This document shows positions 49,044 to 56,961 of a stretch of DNA of 64,000 nt, piece by piece. This DNA is from Euhalothece natronophila Z-M001. GTDB taxonomy: Bacteria > Cyanobacteriota > Cyanobacteriia > Cyanobacteriales > Rubidibacteraceae. Position numbers and translations under genes: made by a program. How positions within the stretch are numbered: the stretch's first letter is position 1; the number at the start of each line of letters is the position of its first letter. Location: NCBI RefSeq assembly GCF_007904085.1, contig NZ_CP042326.1:2232001-2296000 (forward strand), read 5' to 3'. The notes below the pieces were generated by a model that searched no databases, was not told where the DNA came from, and saw only the letters and a program-made list of their open reading frames with translations.

Positions 49044-50573
49044 CTAGGCATTATTGGGATTACGAGTGGTTTTGTCACCCACTTTTTGGAATGCACCCCA
49101 TTCTACTTGTTCTTCTAAGTCAGCTTCCACACCAGCGAAGACATCGCGGTAGAGGGTACGAGAGCCATGCCAAATATGACCAAAGAAGAACAGGAGAGCA
49201 AAGACCGCATGACCAAAGGTAAACCAACCACGAGGACTGGTGCGGAATACCCCGTCTGAGTCAAGGGTTTCTTTGTCAAAGGAGAATACTTCTCCTAATT
49301 GTGCTTTCCGAGCGTATTTTTTCACCTGTAAGGGATCTTCAAAGGTTTGACCATCTAACGCTCCACCAAAGAAGCTCACAGTTACGCCCATTTGCTCAAT
49401 ACTATATTTTGATTCAGCACGACGGAACGGAATATCCGCACGCACCACGCCATTTTCATCTTCTAAAACCACAGGGAAGGTTTCAAAGAAGTTGGGAAGA
49501 CGACGCACACTTAATTCACGTCCTTCAGCATCCTTAAATACAGGGTGTCCCAGCCATGCTTGGGCTAAACCATCCCCTTGGTTCATGGGGCCAACACGGA
49601 ATAAACCACCTTTGGAGGGGTTATTGCCCACATAGTCATAGAAGGCAAGTTTTTCAGGAATTTGTGACCAAGCCTCAGATCGGCTATAGCCATCTGCCAT
49701 GTAACTATCCACACGGCGTTCAATTTCTTCTTGGAAATAACCCTGATCCCATTGATAACGGGTGGGACCAAATAACTCGATGGGGGTGGTGGCGCTACCG
49801 TACCACATGGTTCCAGCAACCACAAAGGCAGCAAAGAATACCGCAGCAATACTGCTAGAGAGGACGGTTTCAATGTTCCCCATCCGTAATGCGCGATAGA
49901 GTCGTTGCGGTGGACGAACCGCTAAGTGGAAAATACCGGCAATAATTCCCACAATTCCGGCAGCAATATGGTGGGCAACAACACCGCCTGCATTAAAGGG
50001 ATTAAAGCCTTCTGGACCCCATTCTGGGGCAACGGGTTCCACATGACCCGTCAAGCCGTAGGGGTCTGATACCCACATCCCTGGCCCAAATAAGCCCGTG
50101 AGGTGGAATGCTCCAAAGCCGAAGCAAAGTAAGCCCGCTAAGAATAAGTGAATCCCAAACATTTTGGGAAGGTCAAGAGCCGCTTCACCAGTACGGGGAT
50201 CATAGAAGAGGTCTAAATCCCAGTAAACCCAGTGCCAGCAGGCAGCTAAAAAGAGTAATCCTGAGAGGATAATGTGCGCGATCGCGACACCTTCAAAAGA
50301 CCAAATACCAGGGTCAACGGCGGTTTCTCCCGTAACACTCCAGCCACCCCAAGATTCAGTTACGCCCAAACGGGTCATAAAGGGCAACACAAACATTCCT
50401 TGTCGCCACATGGGGTTTAAAACTGGGTCACTAGGATCAAACGTGGCTAATTCAAATAACGCCATTGATCCGGCCCAACCTGCCACTAAAGCGGTATGCA
50501 TTAAATGGACGGAAATTAATCGTCCTGGATCATTTAAGACAACTGTGTGAACTCGATACCAGGGTAGTCCCAT
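49044..50573 (-). CDS. psbB: photosystem II CP47 chlorophyll protein
   Basis: 509 residues, full length. [20 protein letters not shown] at the N-terminus, six membrane helices, His residues for chlorophyll in each helix, the large lumenal loop between helices 5 and 6, and the conserved end of helix 6 ([20 protein letters not shown]). CP47 is the inner antenna bound to D2. A GGAG site precedes the start. Confidence 0.98.
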
Positions 50574-50776: not shown

Positions 50777-53392
50777 TTAAACAATTAGTTGCCAAAAACC
50801 CACCGTTAGTCCTAATATGGCTAGATGTTGCGGCAATAATGACCAAAAAGAACGATTGAGAATTTTTTGGGTTAAAAGCACTGACAACACACTGACTAGG
50901 AATAAAATCCCTCCTTGAAGAAAATTAATCACCGCAGGATGGGTAACCATAATTGGTAAACTTTCCCCACTCCCACCAAAGGTTGCAAACATTACGGGAA
51001 ATAAACGTCCTGCTTCTCCTAAGCCTAAATCTAGATAATGGGCAATATTTGCTCCTAACACCAAAGGTAAGTAGCCATAAGCAGCTTCTAAAAATGGAGC
51101 AGGTTGAGGAAAACTGGTTTCGGGATTGAGCTTAGTTTTTAGGTAATAAACCAGTCTCATTGTTCCTTGCGCTAACAGTGGGATGAGGGCAGGTAAACTT
51201 AAGACAGTTACAGCGATCGCGCTATGAGTCCAAAATTGCTCTAAATGCCAGTTCACTCCCAACAGACTTTCTAATTCTGGAAGGCGATGGAGAAACACCA
51301 AATCTAACAACAGTAGCAACAGGGCCACTTCATAAAATTTTGGCTTGTGAGTTGTCCATAAATCAATGCCAGGGAGTCGCAAATTGACCTCTCCCGAACT
51401 GTTAGGACAGACTTTGATACAATTCATGCACATAACACAATCGCGGTTATCTTGAAGCTGCGCGGGATGAGAACATAAGCTACAACCGTTTGTTGCTTGA
51501 GTGTCTCCTTCTCCTGAGCTTCCTTTCACGCATTGACCCGTGGTACATTCGGCAGAACAAGTTCCCTGTTGCGCTCGTACTTCTATCATCGAGAGTTTGC
51601 CAAACATTCCCGTCATACCGCCAATGGGACACAAATAGCGACACCAAAAACGTCGTTCAAAAATGACAGAAAAGATGACTGCACCAGCAGTAATCACAAG
51701 CAATAAATAACCTGATAAATAGGCGGTGTCTTGTAAATTCCACACTTCTTCCCAAAGTAAAATCAGGGCAAATAAACCGAATAAAAACCATCCTCCCCAA
51801 CGTTCGGCAGATTTACGGGGCCAACGTTTGAGTTTTCGAGGGAATAGCCACAGCGAGACTTTCTGGGCAATTTCTCCATAAACCATAAAGGGGCAAGCGG
51901 CACACCATAAACGTCCAATGAGGGGAAAAGAAATGAGAACCCCTGGCCACCACCAAGCCCAAAATAGATTCAAACCAAAGTTTTCTGCACGATTTTGGGG
52001 GCCGACAAATAAAACTGCCACAATAATGGCAAAAGTGGGTAAAACCAGCCAGTATTTTAAGCGATCTGGCCACCAGGCACTGCGTACAAACTGACGTAGG
52101 CGAGGAAACTTATTGAGTAAATTTAAGCGCAGTCGTTTTTTCTCGTTATTAGAGGGCCAAATATTTTCTTCTGTCAGGGGTTGCCCTTCTGGTAATTCAA
52201 CGATCGCGCGACGAATACAATTTTCTAATTCTGTTAAATTATTGGGAAAGTCATACCCTTGTAGCTCTCGAATCGCTTCTTGGGTCACTTGAGGTTGGGG
52301 CAAGCCTTTACTGCGACAAATGACACTCACATAATATTTCAGATGGTCTTCTAGATCCGCTTTTCGGGTTCGTAATGGGGGAATTTTGATGGTTCGTGGC
52401 ACTAAAGAATTTAGCTCAGGAACGGCTTTTTCGGAAATCAGGATAATCCGAGCTTGACAGGTTTTTGTCGGTGGTGGTGATTCTCCCGAAGAGGTGACAG
52501 GGGTAAAGGTTCCATCTTTTAGGAGTTGCCCGATCGCGCCCCGTAAGTTTTCATCTAATTTTTGGACATTATTTAAAACGAATGTTCCTTTTCCTAGTGC
52601 TTCGAGTAAACCAATTTTGCCGTTAGCTTCTCCAAATAATTCTTCGCCACTGCCTTGTAATCTACTACAATCAACCTTAATCATCGGCTCTCGTCGTTGA
52701 GAAGAGCCAAAATGAATCAGGGCAGCCGCATTATCTTTTCCTGAACTTGGTTCACCAGAAATTAAAACTGATTCCTGAGTTTCTGATGCTTCTTGAATCT
52801 GTTTTCGCAGGCGCACAGCATAACGACTCCTACCAATAATGCCACACTTTGCTTTCGTAACTAAATAGGGGCGTAAAACATTTGTCCGTTCTTGTTCAAA
52901 GTTGAGTCGTGATGATAGGATTGCTAGCTCTTCTGTCAAATCTGGATACTTATATAACTGCTGTGACAAAGTTTCAGTAATTTCAGGATATTTAGTGATT
53001 AAGGCTCGCATTCGTTGATGGTCAATAAACCAAATTTGACAGTTACTTTTGGTAATGACTGTTTCCCGAGTCGGTTGCTTCAGAATTAATGACTCTAGAT
53101 TAATTAAACTTCCTGGCAATAAACTTAAATTTTGTGATAGTTTTGGAGGTCTTTTGTGAGCAAGGTTTGGAGAAATTTGGCTTTCTAATTTTCCCTCTTT
53201 TAGAATGTAGAGTCCGAGGGGTTGGGTTTCGGCTTTAATGAGGGTTTCATTCGCCTCAACAGTACGTTCTTCTAATAAGGGCGCGATCGCGCTTAACACC
53301 TCTGCTGATAAAGTTTTGAAAGCGGTTTTTTCCTGCAACCAAGTAACTATTTGGGTAACATTTACTTTTCCTTCTGCCACTGTAATACTCAT
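50777..53392 (-). CDS. cyclic-nucleotide domain / degenerate sigma-54-type AAA+ / NapH-like Fe-S membrane fusion
   Basis: 871 residues from ATG 53392, chosen for its AAGGA site six bases upstream (53476 is an alternative). Order: cyclic nucleotide-binding domain (about 15-140); AAA+ domain of the sigma-54 activator type (about 180-410); then at least eight membrane helices with two CxxxCP-type motifs (CAACPFMVYGE ~497; RRFWCRYLCPIGG ~590), a cysteine-rich stretch and a ferredoxin motif CVMCMNCIKVCP (~650). The AAA+ part is degenerate: Walker A reads GEPSSGKDN, Walker B reads FVLNNVQKL instead of FLDEIGEL, and the GAFTGA loop is missing. The end is a membrane region. Likely a membrane redox sensor or electron-transfer protein. 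Confidence 0.85.
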   Translation of the reverse strand: MSITVAEGKVNVTQIVTWLQEKTAFKTLSAEVLSAIAPLLEERTVEANETLIKAETQPLGLYILKEGKLESQISPNLAHKRPPKLSQNLSLLPGSLINLESLILKQPTRETVITKSNCQIWFIDHQRMRALITKYPEITETLSQQLYKYPDLTEELAILSSRLNFEQERTNVLRPYLVTKAKCGIIGRSRYAVRLRKQIQEASETQESVLISGEPSSGKDNAAALIHFGSSQRREPMIKVDCSRLQGSGEELFGEANGKIGLLEALGKGTFVLNNVQKLDENLRGAIGQLLKDGTFTPVTSSGESPPPTKTCQARIILISEKAVPELNSLVPRTIKIPPLRTRKADLEDHLKYYVSVICRSKGLPQPQVTQEAIRELQGYDFPNNLTELENCIRRAIVELPEGQPLTEENIWPSNNEKKRLRLNLLNKFPRLRQFVRSAWWPDRLKYWLVLPTFAIIVAVLFVGPQNRAENFGLNLFWAWWWPGVLISFPLIGRLWCAACPFMVYGEIAQKVSLWLFPRKLKRWPRKSAERWGGWFLFGLFALILLWEEVWNLQDTAYLSGYLLLVITAGAVIFSVIFERRFWCRYLCPIGGMTGMFGKLSMIEVRAQQGTCSAECTTGQCVKGSSGEGDTQATNGCSLCSHPAQLQDNRDCVMCMNCIKVCPNSSGEVNLRLPGIDLWTTHKPKFYEVALLLLLLDLVFLHRLPELESLLGVNWHLEQFWTHSAIAVTVLSLPALIPLLAQGTMRLVYYLKTKLNPETSFPQPAPFLEAAYGYLPLVLGANIAHYLDLGLGEAGRLFPVMFATFGGSGESLPIMVTHPAVINFLQGGILFLVSVLSVLLTQKILNRSFWSLLPQHLAILGLTVGFWQLIV

Positions 53393-53476
53393 ATTTTTTC
53401 CTTGCTTAATAACAACTCCTCGATAGGATATTTCACAACCCCAAAAAGCACTATGACTGAGGTTTATGTCGATCAA

Positions 53477-53894
53477 GGAATATTATTCACGATCTTTATT
53501 AGCACCTCAGGAGTAATTCTTAGATTTGAGTTGCACTCGATATTTTTCAAATATTTTCCTGATTTTAGGTTAACAATTAAATTTGATATAAGTAGTTAAA
53601 TGTGATACTTATTATGTCGTAAATCTTTTATGTTATCTAAATTACTTAGATACAATTCCTTAATAAAATATTAATAGCTATGCAAAATTTATAAACTTTC
53701 TATGTTTGAAGTTATAGCGCTTTAAGACAATTGGTATGTTGAGTAGATTTAATATTTTTCTCTTGCTAAAATAAAAAATAATGGTGCTCTCTTAATTTTC
53801 TGGAAGTTTTTTTATCTTTTTTAAATTAATAAATCAGAGTTCTTACCAAAATAAATTTAACTTGAACTCTAACGTTGGTTAGAAAGAAAACAGA
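53477..53894. other. AT-rich intergenic region, nothing recognised
   Basis: About 420 bases upstream of the fusion gene with no believable frame. It has repeated ATTTTTCAAATATTTTC-like AT tracts and must contain the fusion gene's promoter. No RNA gene seen. Confidence 0.4.
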
Positions 53895-54060
53895 TTAAAC
53901 AATTAGCTGGCAAAAACCTACCGTTAGTCCCAATATGGCTAAATGTTGCGGTAATAATGACCAAAAAGAACGACGCAGAATTTTTTGAGTTAAAACTACT
54001 GCTAGCAGGCTACCAACAAATAAACTTGCCCCTTGTAAGAAATCAATCACTGCTGGATGC
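53895..54060 (-). pseudogene. C-terminal fragment of a second copy of the Fe-S fusion gene
   Basis: The minus-strand frame HPAVIDFLQGASLFVGSLLA then VVLTQKILRRSFWSLLPQHL, ending GFCQLIV-TAA, aligns residue by residue with the last ~55 residues of the gene ending at 50777 (HPAVINFLQGGILFLVSVLS). No other part of a second copy exists in the window. It is a diverged duplicate remnant. Confidence 0.85.
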
Positions 54061-54170
54061 GCGATCGCCGATGTTGCTTAAAGGCTTCATTACCTGATGA
54101 CAGCTAATTTGTTAAGACGACACTAATCTGTCACCGATGACAAATAATTAGTGAATTTAAAATAGAATAA

Positions 54171-54242
<72 letters not shown>

Positions 54243-54371
54243 AAACCTTTAATAATCTAACACAAGGCTTACAAAAATGCAAATAAAATTTTTCAACTGA
54301 GCATACTGCGGTAGCAAAATCGATTAAGGAAGGATAGCATGAATCCTGGTTAGATCAAAAAGGAACATAAC

Positions 54372-55237
54372 ATGATGTGGAACGAAATTGCACAAAAAAT
54401 CTCTCAAGCTACTGGTAAATCCTTTTATATTCAGGATCAGCGCTCTGTTGGTGGCGGTTGTATTAGCCAGGCTTATACCGTTACTGATGGCAAAGATACC
54501 TATTTTGTCAAGTTTAATAGTGCCTCGGAATATGAAATGTTTGAAGCAGAAGCCCTAGGCTTAAAAGAAATGTATGAGACAAAAACAATTCGCATTCCAC
54601 AGCCTATCTGTTGGGGAACAACCAATAGTTCTGCTTATCTAGTTATGGAGTGGCTAGAACTAGGGCGCGGTGGCGGTTCTGGGGTTTGGGAAAAAATGGG
54701 AGAACAATTAGCCCAGATGCACCGTAAAGGAGTTGCCAATAAGTTTGGTTGGCATCGTAATAATACCATTGGTTCTACGCCACAAATTAATACTTGGACA
54801 GATAACTGGGCTGATTTTTTGCAGAACACCGTATTGGCTATCAAGTGCGTTTAGCCAAACGACGGGGAGGAAATTATCCTGACACCAATAAAGTGGTAGA
54901 AAGAGTGAGAGAGTTATTACGCGATCATCATCCACAACCGTCTTTAGTTCATGGTGACTTATGGGGAGGAAATGCAGAAGTGACTAAAGATGGAGAACCG
55001 GTTATCCTTGATCCAGCCACTTATTACGGCGATCGCGAAGTGGATATTGCTATGAGTGAACTGTTTGGAGGGTTCCCTGCTGGATTTTATCAGGGGTACA
55101 ATGCCGCTTGGGAACTAGATTCTGGCTATCAACAACGGAAAGACTTATATAATCTTTATCACATCCTCAACCACTTTAATCTCTTTGGTGGGGGATATGG
55201 TTCCCAAGCCCGTCGCATCATTGATCGATTGCTGTAA
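54372..55237 (+). pseudogene. fructosamine/ketosamine-3-kinase family gene, single-base frameshift
   Basis: Two overlapping frames make one gene. Frame 1 (54372-54854) gives the N-lobe: QRSVGGGCISQAYTV, YFVKFNSASEYEMFEAEALG, NTWTDNWADF. Frame 2 (to 55237) gives the C-lobe: LVHGDLWGGNAEVTKDGEPV with the catalytic HGD and the DPATYYGDREVD metal motif. The switch is at a run of six T (54815-54820); a seventh T would give DFFAEHRIGYQVRLAKRRGG without interruption. The family phosphorylates sugar-amine adducts to repair glycated proteins. Real mutation and sequencing error are both possible. Confidence 0.85.
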
Positions 55238-56168: not shown

Positions 56169-56226
56169 GATCACAAAGTGAAGCTATACTATATGTAAAC
56201 GATTCATTCTCTAATCATTGGAACCT

Positions 56227-56961
56227 ATGGACGACAAAACAGCCACCCGCAACGTTAAAGCCGAACTCGATCAACTCATGGCCCCCGGAATGTTCTTCGA
56301 GGGATTACCAGAAGACACTTTACGGGAAATGGTTTGCCATATCGTTTCTCGTAATCATCCCGCTAACCAAGTGATTCTTCTTGAAAATGACTGGGGAGGT
56401 TCAGTATATTTTATTATTGAAGGTTGGGTAAAAATTCGTACTTATAATAAGGATGGAAAAGAAGTTACCCTGAATATTCTCGGTACAGGGGAAGTTTTTG
56501 GCGAAATGTCGGCAATGGAGGAAGTGCCCCGTTCCACCGATGTTTTAACTTTAACGCCAACTCGCATTTGCAGTATTCCCTCAGGAGACTTTCTCAAAAT
56601 TTTGCAAGTGGAACCCTTAGCCGGGATACGTTTATCACAGTTGATGGCGAAACGGTTACGCCAGGTGAATCGTCGCCTCAGATTGCGAGAATCCGATAGC
56701 ATTTCTCGGGTTGCCGATGTGCTTTTATTCTTAGCAGAAGGACAAGGACAACCAGTTAAAGAAGGAGTTGATATCCCGAATCTTCCTCACCGCGAGTTAA
56801 GTAGTCTTAGTGGACTAGCCCGAGAAACGGTCACGCGGGTTTTAGCAAGACTAGAAAAAGCAGAGTTGATTCAACGACGCTACCATACTTTACGCATTCC
56901 CGATACTCTCGCTCTAGAAGAAGTGTTATCTTCTAGTTCGACGATCTCTCTAAACGATTAA
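56227..56961 (+). CDS. CRP/FNR-family transcriptional regulator
   Basis: About 244 residues from ATG 56227 (a TTG at 56218 is an alternative). The cyclic nucleotide-binding beta-roll covers about 25-145 (GEVFGEMSAMEEVPRSTDVL), followed by the dimer helix and a winged helix with LSSLSGLARETVTRVLARLEK as recognition helix. The phosphate-binding cassette GEMSAMEEVPRSTD retains the Arg-Ser pair, so cAMP binding is possible. Two membrane protein genes follow on the same strand. Confidence 0.88.
   Translation: MDDKTATRNVKAELDQLMAPGMFFEGLPEDTLREMVCHIVSRNHPANQVILLENDWGGSVYFIIEGWVKIRTYNKDGKEVTLNILGTGEVFGEMSAMEEVPRSTDVLTLTPTRICSIPSGDFLKILQVEPLAGIRLSQLMAKRLRQVNRRLRLRESDSISRVADVLLFLAEGQGQPVKEGVDIPNLPHRELSSLSGLARETVTRVLARLEKAELIQRRYHTLRIPDTLALEEVLSSSSTISLND

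What the first reader, a model, noticed from the sequence alone, without database searches (positions are those of the whole stretch)
50777..53392. Pseudo-AAA+ sigma-54-activator domain fused to a cyclic-nucleotide sensor and a NapH-like Fe-S membrane domain
Seen: one intact gene joins three modules. The AAA+ module keeps its fold-level motifs but lacks the GAFTGA loop, has Walker B FVLNNVQKL in place of FLDEIGEL, and an altered Walker A (GEPSSGKDN). Known: cyanobacteria generally lack sigma-54 (RpoN), so a GAFTGA-less relative cannot be a classical activator. Inference: the AAA+ part may be a non-catalytic relay between cyclic nucleotide binding and redox chemistry at two CxxxCP cores plus a 4Fe-4S cluster.
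Basis: partly seen in the sequence, partly recalled or inferred. Interest (0 to 1): 0.62.

Follow-up and report, generated by a model that had tools for sequence, protein, structure and literature searches.

The report
Dead-ATPase membrane iron-sulfur protein of cyanobacteria
The gene is real: it belongs to a common but uncharacterised cyanobacterial family in which two worn-out sensor/ATPase domains are fused to a well-conserved iron-sulfur membrane protein, and this copy is an unusually fast-changing local duplicate.

Summary
The gene at 50777-53392 (-) is real and intact: a CNB-like domain, a sigma-54-activator-type AAA+ domain and a membrane Fe-S half. It is not a one-off: 275 of 388 cyanobacterial-class genomes have a match (some weak), 0 of 48 genomes elsewhere in the phylum match its Fe-S half.

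In 161 distinct members the Walker-B glutamate and GAFTGA are always absent and the Walker-A lysine always present. No sigma-54 DNA-binding domain was found in this genome. The cyclic-nucleotide pocket lacks its Glu and Arg in 161 of 161, so a cyclic-nucleotide relay is not supported. Twelve cysteines are invariant in the alignments.

This copy is a lineage-specific duplicate beside psbB. It breaks 31 of 256 near-invariant positions (median of 113 members: 1), keeping all twelve cysteines. A 175-bp scrap of its conserved twin lies just upstream.

A sister clade lies directly upstream of a cysteine-synthase gene in 23 of 36 testable loci (main clade: 0 of 72), often among sulfide/low-oxygen genes.

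Best reading: a membrane [4Fe-4S] redox protein with a non-hydrolysing AAA+/CNB scaffold; substrate unknown.

The parts
50777..53392 (-). whole gene, 871 aa (start ATG at 53392)
   Evidence: start matches paralogue L001
52949..53359 (-). CNB-like domain, residues 12-148; pocket reads INLESLILKQPTRE where the window's own CRP-type protein has FGEMSAMEEVPRST
   Evidence: PF00027 38.3 bits; VIA Z 16.8 vs 5v4s; pocket columns
52364..52843 (-). AAA+ large subdomain, residues 184-343
   Evidence: PF00158 49.6 bits; VIA Z 22.1 to FleQ 6jdi, 227 aligned, rmsd 3.0
52730..52756 (-). Walker A, GEPSSGKDN (residues 213-221)
   Evidence: sequence; family counts
52568..52573 (-). Walker B positions N274-N275 (Asp-Glu in active activators)
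52148..52363 (-). AAA+ lid, residues 344-415
   Evidence: PF25601 33.6 bits; lid region within VIA range
50780..52147 (-). Fe-S / transmembrane half, residues 416-871
   Evidence: PF12801; model m300fdb13dcae of residues 412-871, mean pLDDT 83.5; stand-alone homologue in Deinococcus ficus
51890..51904 (-). first membrane core C497-x2-C500-P
   Evidence: invariant in A1 and A2
51626..51643 (-). second membrane core C584-x3-C588-P
   Evidence: invariant in A1 and A2
51353..51577 (-). Cys-rich loop, residues 606-680: C612, C616, C621, C637 and C652-x2-C655-x2-C658-x3-C662-P; carries 16 of this copy's 31 family-breaking positions, among them an extra Cys640
53894..54068 (-). scrap of the conserved paralogue's C-terminal end (94.3% DNA identity over 175 bp), directly upstream of the gene
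49044..50573 (-). psbB (CP47), next gene downstream; order family gene-psbB-rps1 shared by the five Halothece-group genomes looked at

Best explanation
The protein is a thylakoid- or plasma-membrane polyferredoxin: an electron-transfer or redox-sensing membrane protein with up to three [4Fe-4S] clusters on its cytosolic face. Its N-terminal CNB-like and AAA+-like domains most likely no longer sense cyclic nucleotides or hydrolyse ATP; they act as an assembly scaffold (possibly a ring) and a conformational control element for the redox half. The window copy is a duplicate that arose within its own lineage and is being re-tuned, above all in the cluster-bearing loop. Shown by computation: domain order, family-wide loss of catalytic and pocket residues, invariance of 12 Cys, duplication and rate acceleration. 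Inferred: the clusters, the topology, oligomerisation and the redox role. The physiological substrate is unknown; the sister clade's link to cysK and sulfide/low-oxygen islands points to sulfur or low-oxygen redox chemistry.
For: Walker-B Glu 0 of 161, GAFTGA-like motif 0 of 161, Walker-A Lys 161 of 161, second arginine-finger position Arg in 158 of 161: catalysis lost, nucleotide/subunit-contact frame partly kept. The clades lose different parts: the main clade keeps the first arginine-finger position (114 of 114) but the P-loop Gly only in 21 of 114, while clade B keeps the P-loop Gly (38 of 38) but never that Arg (0 of 38); no clade has a full catalytic set. CNB pocket Glu 0 of 161 and Arg 0 of 161 at the aligned columns, 9 gapped, whereas the window's own CRP-type neighbour keeps FGE...PR. 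Conservation rises toward the Fe-S cores: CNB 0.60, AAA+ 0.73-0.74, core helices 0.82-0.92, Cys loop 0.94, but C-terminal helices 0.70. All 12 Cys are invariant in 26 rows and in 42 rows from all three clades. A stand-alone version of the Fe-S half exists. Pfam finds no DNA-binding domain. Duplicate: dS to the paralogue 0.99 versus 1.55-1.73 between the paralogue and two relatives; dN 0.18 versus 0.09-0.10; changes unique to the window copy 113 versus 34, chi2 42.5.
Against: No biochemical data. The Fe-S half has no solved structural relative by Foldseek (0 hits at E<=0.001), so cluster placement is by motif only, and most of the Cys loop is predicted with pLDDT under 50. Clade B keeps a canonical GKT P-loop in 37 of 38 rows and a Walker-B Asp in 18 of 38, so ATP binding there is plausible. 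In this copy an Arg lies one column from the expected CNB pocket position. The main clade shows no widely shared neighbour (the commonest is in 12 of 80 loci), so its pathway is not indicated by context, and the psbB link is not seen in three other loci of the same family.
Confidence: 0.6

Rival explanations
1. It is a membrane-tethered transcription regulator that works with sigma-70-type polymerase, as described for some GAFTGA-deviant activator relatives (TyrR) and suspected for VpsR; the Fe-S half is its redox sensor.
For: AAA+ fold of the activator family. Francke et al. discuss such relatives (PMC3162934, passages). One clade-B relative is named 'nitrogen assimilation regulatory protein'. 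A Synechocystis gene of that name, slr1529, was knocked out as a putative regulator with changed metabolite profiles at 72 h (PMC5318462, passage), but I could not verify that slr1529 belongs to this family.
Against: No HTH or other DNA-binding domain in Pfam. Conservation is highest in the Fe-S cores and loop, not in the regulatory half.
Confidence: 0.15
2. The AAA+ part is still an ATPase that uses unusual residues.
For: Walker-A Lys 161 of 161 and second arginine-finger position 158 of 161; the window copy keeps GxxxxGK; clade B keeps GKT in 37 of 38 and a Walker-B Asp in 18 of 38.
Against: No Glu at the catalytic position in any of 161 members; P-loop Gly replaced in 93 of 114 main-clade members; first arginine-finger Arg lost in 38 of 38 clade-B members.
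Confidence: 0.07
3. The window copy is a decaying redundant duplicate without function.
For: 31 of 256 near-invariant positions changed; about threefold excess of changes over its paralogue; a paralogue with family-typical sequence exists elsewhere in the genome.
Against: Intact 871-codon frame, all 12 Cys kept, pairwise dN/dS about 0.18 at dS about 1; no family-breaking change in the C-terminal helices (0 of 38).
Confidence: 0.15
4. The family reduces or handles a metal or sulfur compound at the membrane (CcoG- or NosR-like reductase), feeding for example cysteine synthesis in the cysK-linked clade. This is a more specific form of the best explanation, not exclusive of it.
For: Clade B directly upstream of cysK in 23 of 36 testable loci, with rhodanese, petC and psbA variants and SQR-like genes nearby in some. 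The Deinococcus relative overlaps a His-rich secreted-protein gene; a heavy-metal ATPase and a DUF305 gene lie several kb away in the same stretch.
Against: Main clade and window copy are not linked to this cysK (0 of 72 adjacent, 2 of 72 anywhere in the stretch). Scores against NapH, NosR and CcoG models are far below their cut-offs.
Confidence: 0.25

Closest known systems
NtrC/NifA-family bacterial enhancer-binding proteins (AAA+ central domain)
   Same: Fold of residues 180-416 (VIA Z about 22 to FleQ, NtrX, NtrC1), lid, Walker-A Lys, arginine-finger region
   Different: No GAFTGA, no Walker-B acid in this copy, no HTH, no sigma-54 DNA-binding domain found in the genome, membrane-anchored
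NapH/MauN, NosR/NirI and CcoG/RdxA/FixG membrane polyferredoxins
   Same: Fer4_5 (PF12801), Cys-Pro cores at helix ends, a following ferredoxin motif; napH_ TIGR02163 at 55.7 bits
   Different: Below every curated cut-off (213.05 for napH_, 1000 for NosR, 316.7 for CcoG); first core CxxCP; extra 8-Cys loop; fused to CNB and AAA+ parts. That those families usually have CxxxCP cores is recalled
CRP/PKA-type cyclic-nucleotide-binding domain
   Same: Fold (VIA Z 16.8 to 5v4s; PF00027 in 26 of 26)
   Different: Pocket Glu and Arg absent at the aligned columns in 161 of 161
Synechocystis slr1529 'nitrogen assimilation regulatory protein'
   Same: Same database name as clade-B member NIES50_69290; membership is a guess from the name, not verified by sequence
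   Different: In the passages I saw it is only a listed gene or putative regulator: ratio 0.29 after 3 uM copper (PMC4182526), table values down to -1.17 under iron deprivation (PMC3516471)

Membership tests
sigma-54 activator (bEBP) | GAFTGA loop | tested here: not met
   0 of 161 distinct members
sigma-54 activator (bEBP) | Walker-B Asp-Glu | tested here: not met
   window N274-N275; Glu absent in 161 of 161, Asp present in 24 of 161
sigma-54 activator (bEBP) | AAA+ fold with lid | tested here: met
sigma-54 activator (bEBP) | sigma-54 in the genome | tested here: not met
   PF04552: none in own genome; 2 of 145 class genomes with 33-38-position fragments, one over the cut-off; other RpoN domains not searched
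sigma-54 activator (bEBP) | C-terminal Fis-type HTH | tested here: not met
   no HTH family in Pfam scans; some true activators lack it (PMC3162934, passages)
cyclic-nucleotide-binding domain | pocket Glu and Arg (FGE...PR) | tested here: not met
   0 of 161 for each at the aligned columns, 9-11 gapped; an Arg one or two columns on in 12 and 35
cyclic-nucleotide-binding domain | ligand binding | not testable with these tools
   needs purified protein
NapH/MauN family (TIGR02163) | score above curated cut-off 213.05 | tested here: not met
   55.7 bits
NosR (NF046105) | score above curated cut-off 1000 | tested here: not met
   18.6 bits
CcoG/RdxA/FixG (TIGR02745) | score above curated cut-off 316.7 | tested here: not met
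   13.1 bits
Fer4_5 membrane ferredoxin superfamily (PF12801) | score above gathering cut-off | tested here: met
   35.6 bits versus 22; found in 26 of 26
Fer4_5 membrane ferredoxin superfamily (PF12801) | solved structural relative | tested here: inconclusive
   Foldseek 0 hits at E<=0.001; VIA best Z 4.9

The most novel reading that the evidence does not exclude
Oxygenic cyanobacteria carry a widespread membrane redox protein in which a retired sigma-54-activator AAA+ module has been re-used as a non-hydrolysing ring or scaffold gating electron flow through a three-cluster Fe-S membrane core. One branch was recruited into sulfide/low-oxygen islands together with cysteine synthase. In the window's lineage a second, psbB-linked copy is being re-tuned at its cluster loop for a distinct redox partner.
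Probability: 0.3. Interest if true: 0.75.

Novelty: new variant of a known kind. Interest (0 to 1): 0.5.

Why it matters
A family matched in about 70% of the cyanobacterial-class genomes sampled, and whose Fe-S half is in none of the 48 genomes sampled elsewhere in the phylum, has no established function in the papers I could search. Where I saw annotated members they are named after a cyclic-nucleotide domain or as a nitrogen regulator, which their own residues do not support. If it is a ferredoxin-side redox or sulfide-response protein, it opens a part of photosynthetic redox control that can be tested by simple gene deletions in laboratory strains. It also offers a natural series in which related clades lost different parts of one AAA+ active site.

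Tried and rejected
Conserved neighbours of the main clade: the commonest neighbour cluster is in 12 of 80 loci, and nothing general in 20 further loci; rejected as a route to function except psbB in the Halothece group (absent from the 12-kb stretches of three other loci of the same family, L249-L251). The 80 loci are the best-scoring relatives, not a random draw. Convergent origin of the deviant loop in L166 (second copy of G178): the tree places L166 outside the five-row Halothece set (support 100), but holding the two together is not rejected (p-AU 0.156), so convergence is left open; that tree warns that long branches meet, and group A has support 66 only. Fold search with the Fe-S half: no relative; VIA is only a second look at Foldseek's hits. 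Promoter/terminator scan around the gene: no more sites than shuffles by a clear margin, so co-transcription with psbB is undecided. Coordinates of the models were not available to me, so I could not measure Cys-Cys distances. Literature: ten searches found no paper describing this fusion family in their listings; the last term, slr1529, gave three papers. Papers PMC3162934, PMC12316311, PMC8002359, PMC4182526, PMC3516471 and PMC5318462 were seen as passages only; others as listings. PMC12316311 states that two cyanobacteria do have rpoN, so the absence is not absolute. Rows dropped: 218 hits over 450 aligned residues were reduced to 160 distinct rows plus the window, after leaving out 14 loci by name; clade A is the 113 of these with at least 49% identity and the 114 with at least 48%; L141 was read in a wrong frame and disregarded. 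Clade-B flanks were fetched for 36 of the 42 genomes plus two plasmid records; L207 (same plasmid as L171) was dropped before the cysK count and one clade-B and eight clade-A loci lacked 1.3 kb downstream.
Full report
OBSERVATION. The ORF at 50777-53476 (-) encodes a protein that starts at 53392 (871 aa) by comparison with the paralogue L001 and the other homologues. Pfam gives cNMP_binding, Sigma54_activat, Sigma54_activ_2, AAA_lid_14 and Fer4_5, all over their cut-offs; the same five are found in all 26 members of A1. Of 35 PDB sequence hits, 33 are activator AAA+ domains (NifA first) and two are protein-kinase-A regulatory subunits. The AlphaFold2 model (mean pLDDT 73.5) aligns at residues 180-416 to FleQ, NtrX and NtrC1 with Z about 22, and at 7-148 to a cyclic-nucleotide-gated channel with Z 16.8.

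FAMILY. A search of 388 genomes of the class found a match in 275 (E<=0.001; a few are weak single-domain hits). The genome collection gave 457 relatives; the best 80, the only ones listed, are all cyanobacterial by title. In a phylum-wide draw the Fe-S half is in 23 of 31 genomes of the class and in 0 of 48 others at E<=1e-15. The tree has three groups: A (main, with the window; support 66), B (about 40% identity to the window) and f16 (one family of mostly small genomes), B and f16 each with support 100. In f16 the match to the window protein starts near residue 170, so no CNB match is seen. Two genomes carry two AAA+ modules in tandem (L126, L127).

THE AAA+ PART IS A PSEUDO-ENZYME FAMILY-WIDE. 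Over 161 distinct proteins the Walker-B Glu position is never Glu (Asn in 146); the Asp is present in 24; a GAFTGA-like motif is present in 0; the Walker-A Lys in 161; the preceding Gly is replaced in 101; the first arginine-finger position is Arg in 123 and the second in 158. By clade: A (114 rows) keeps the P-loop Gly in 21, the Walker-B Asp in 0 and the first arginine finger in 114; B (38 rows) keeps the P-loop Gly in 38, a Thr after the Lys in 37, the Asp in 18 and that arginine in 0; f16 (9 rows) keeps the Gly in 1, the Asp in 6 and the arginine in 9. The clades lost different parts of the same active site. The Sigma54_DBD was not found in the own genome and gave fragments of 33-38 positions in 2 of 145 class genomes, one just over the cut-off. 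Francke et al. report sigma-54 and its activators absent from 29 cyanobacteria (PMC3162934, passages); PMC12316311 names two exceptions (passage).

THE CNB PART IS ALSO DEGENERATE. Aligned to Bcy1 and to the window's own CRP-type protein at 56218-56961, the position of the ribose-contacting Glu holds Leu in 105, Tyr in 36 and other letters or gaps in the rest, Glu in 0 of 161; the position of the phosphate-contacting Arg holds Arg in 0 of 161. Against this: an Arg stands one column on in 12 (this copy included) and two columns on in 35 members. That these two residues are the diagnostic contacts is established knowledge of the fold, not a result here.

THE Fe-S CORES ARE THE CONSERVED PART. 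Twelve Cys are invariant in A1 (26 rows) and in A2 (42 rows from all three groups): C497-x2-C500-P, C584-x3-C588-P, C612/C616/C621/C637 (followed by Pro in most, Ser in this copy) and C652-x2-C655-x2-C658-x3-C662-P. Mean agreement with consensus in clade A is 0.60 (CNB), 0.73-0.74 (AAA+), 0.82-0.92 (core helices), 0.94 (Cys loop) and 0.70 (C-terminal helices). Basic stretches next to both cores suggest that they face the cytosol (inference from sequence). A stand-alone homologue sits on a Deinococcus ficus plasmid, overlapping a His-rich secreted-protein gene; a heavy-metal ATPase and a DUF305 gene lie several kb off. Scores to napH_, NosR and CcoG models are far below cut-off and no solved structural relative was found.

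THE WINDOW COPY IS A FAST DUPLICATE. The paralogue L001/L168 (C1:1537409-1539985) is 73% identical to the window copy but 85-86% identical to the copies of three Halothece-group relatives (L010, L039, L040). In five genomes (window; L167; L247; L039 = L248; L040) the gene lies upstream of psbB and rps1; it does not in the stretches of three more distant loci of the same family (L249-L251). dS between the two copies is 0.99, against 1.55-1.73 between the paralogue and two relatives, so the duplication looks lineage-specific; dN/dS is about 0.18 against 0.05-0.065, and changes unique to the window copy number 113 against 34. It departs from 31 of 256 near-invariant positions; the median of 113 members is 1, next is L166 with 29 of 259, the rest are at most 14. 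By domain, 16 of 54 near-invariant positions of the Cys loop are changed and 0 of 38 in the C-terminal helices. All 12 Cys are kept and Tyr640 has become Cys. By loop similarity only 2 of 120 genomes of the order (G000, G178) show two main-clade copies; 92 of 120 have a match at all. A 175-bp fragment 53894-54068, 94.3% identical in DNA to the paralogue's 3' end but 80.6% to the window gene, lies just upstream: most simply, the conserved copy once stood in tandem here and was moved, leaving a scrap (inference).

CLADE B AND cysK. In clade B (42 of 368 class genomes at E<=1e-200; flanks fetched for 36 of these 42 and for two plasmid records) a cysteine synthase follows on the same strand within 600 bp in 23 of 36 loci with enough downstream sequence, and is somewhere in the stretch in 26; in the main clade the figures are 0 and 2 of 72, in f16 0 and 0 of 9 (Fisher p about 1e-14 for adjacency, B versus A; related genomes are not independent, so the p-value overstates). 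Neighbours include petC, psbA, rhodanese and DUF2892 homologues (9 of 38 loci each, one plasmid counted twice) and other clusters in 4-6 loci that I read by eye as SQR, cydA/B, ArsR, haem oxygenase and HemN. The named examples are plasmids of Pseudanabaena galeata and Aulosira laxa. This ties the architecture to sulfide/low-oxygen adaptation in one clade; it does not show the main clade's role.

MECHANISM. Shown: loss of catalytic and pocket residues, conserved Cys set, duplication, cysK linkage of clade B. Inferred: three clusters, cytosolic orientation, scaffold role, redox or electron-transfer function. I put 0.6 on the membrane redox protein with a non-hydrolysing scaffold and much less on any particular substrate.

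LITERATURE. Ten searches (listed under Tried and rejected) found no description of this fusion family. Synechocystis slr1529 carries the same database name; it is lowered by excess copper (PMC4182526, passage) and in iron deprivation (PMC3516471, passages), and its knock-out was among six regulator mutants with the most significant metabolite changes at 72 h (PMC5318462, passage). I could not check by sequence that it is a member.

Noticed in passing
window 53894-54068 (-): 175-bp remnant of the conserved paralogue's 3' end, 94.3% DNA identity to the copy at C1:1.54 Mb, directly upstream of the window gene.
   Followed up: yes
window 54170-54243 (-): tRNA-Val (TAC) next to the remnant; no tRNA found in the stretches L167, L039, L248, L247, so the upstream side may be rearranged here.
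   Followed up: partly
window 54372-54854 and 54845-55237 (+): Two overlapping ORFs that look like one fructosamine-kinase-like gene split by a frameshift; named by eye.
   Followed up: no
window 56218-56961 (+): CRP-type regulator with an intact FGE...PR cyclic-nucleotide pocket, used here as a control.
   Followed up: partly
L126, L127 (G025, G054): Family members of 1134-1137 aa with two AAA+ modules in tandem; in L126 the first module reads GEAGVGKV and LVLDHLQDL.
   Followed up: partly
L171, L172, L203-L234: Clade-B gene followed by a cysteine synthase in many loci, inside apparent sulfide/low-oxygen islands, also on plasmids.
   Followed up: yes
L170:11012-13293: Deinococcus ficus stand-alone Fe-S half overlapping a His-rich secreted protein gene.
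   Followed up: partly
L166 (G178 second copy): Another duplicate with similar Cys-loop changes (Tyr to Gly, Gly to Ser, His to Asn and an extra Cys nearby).
   Followed up: partly
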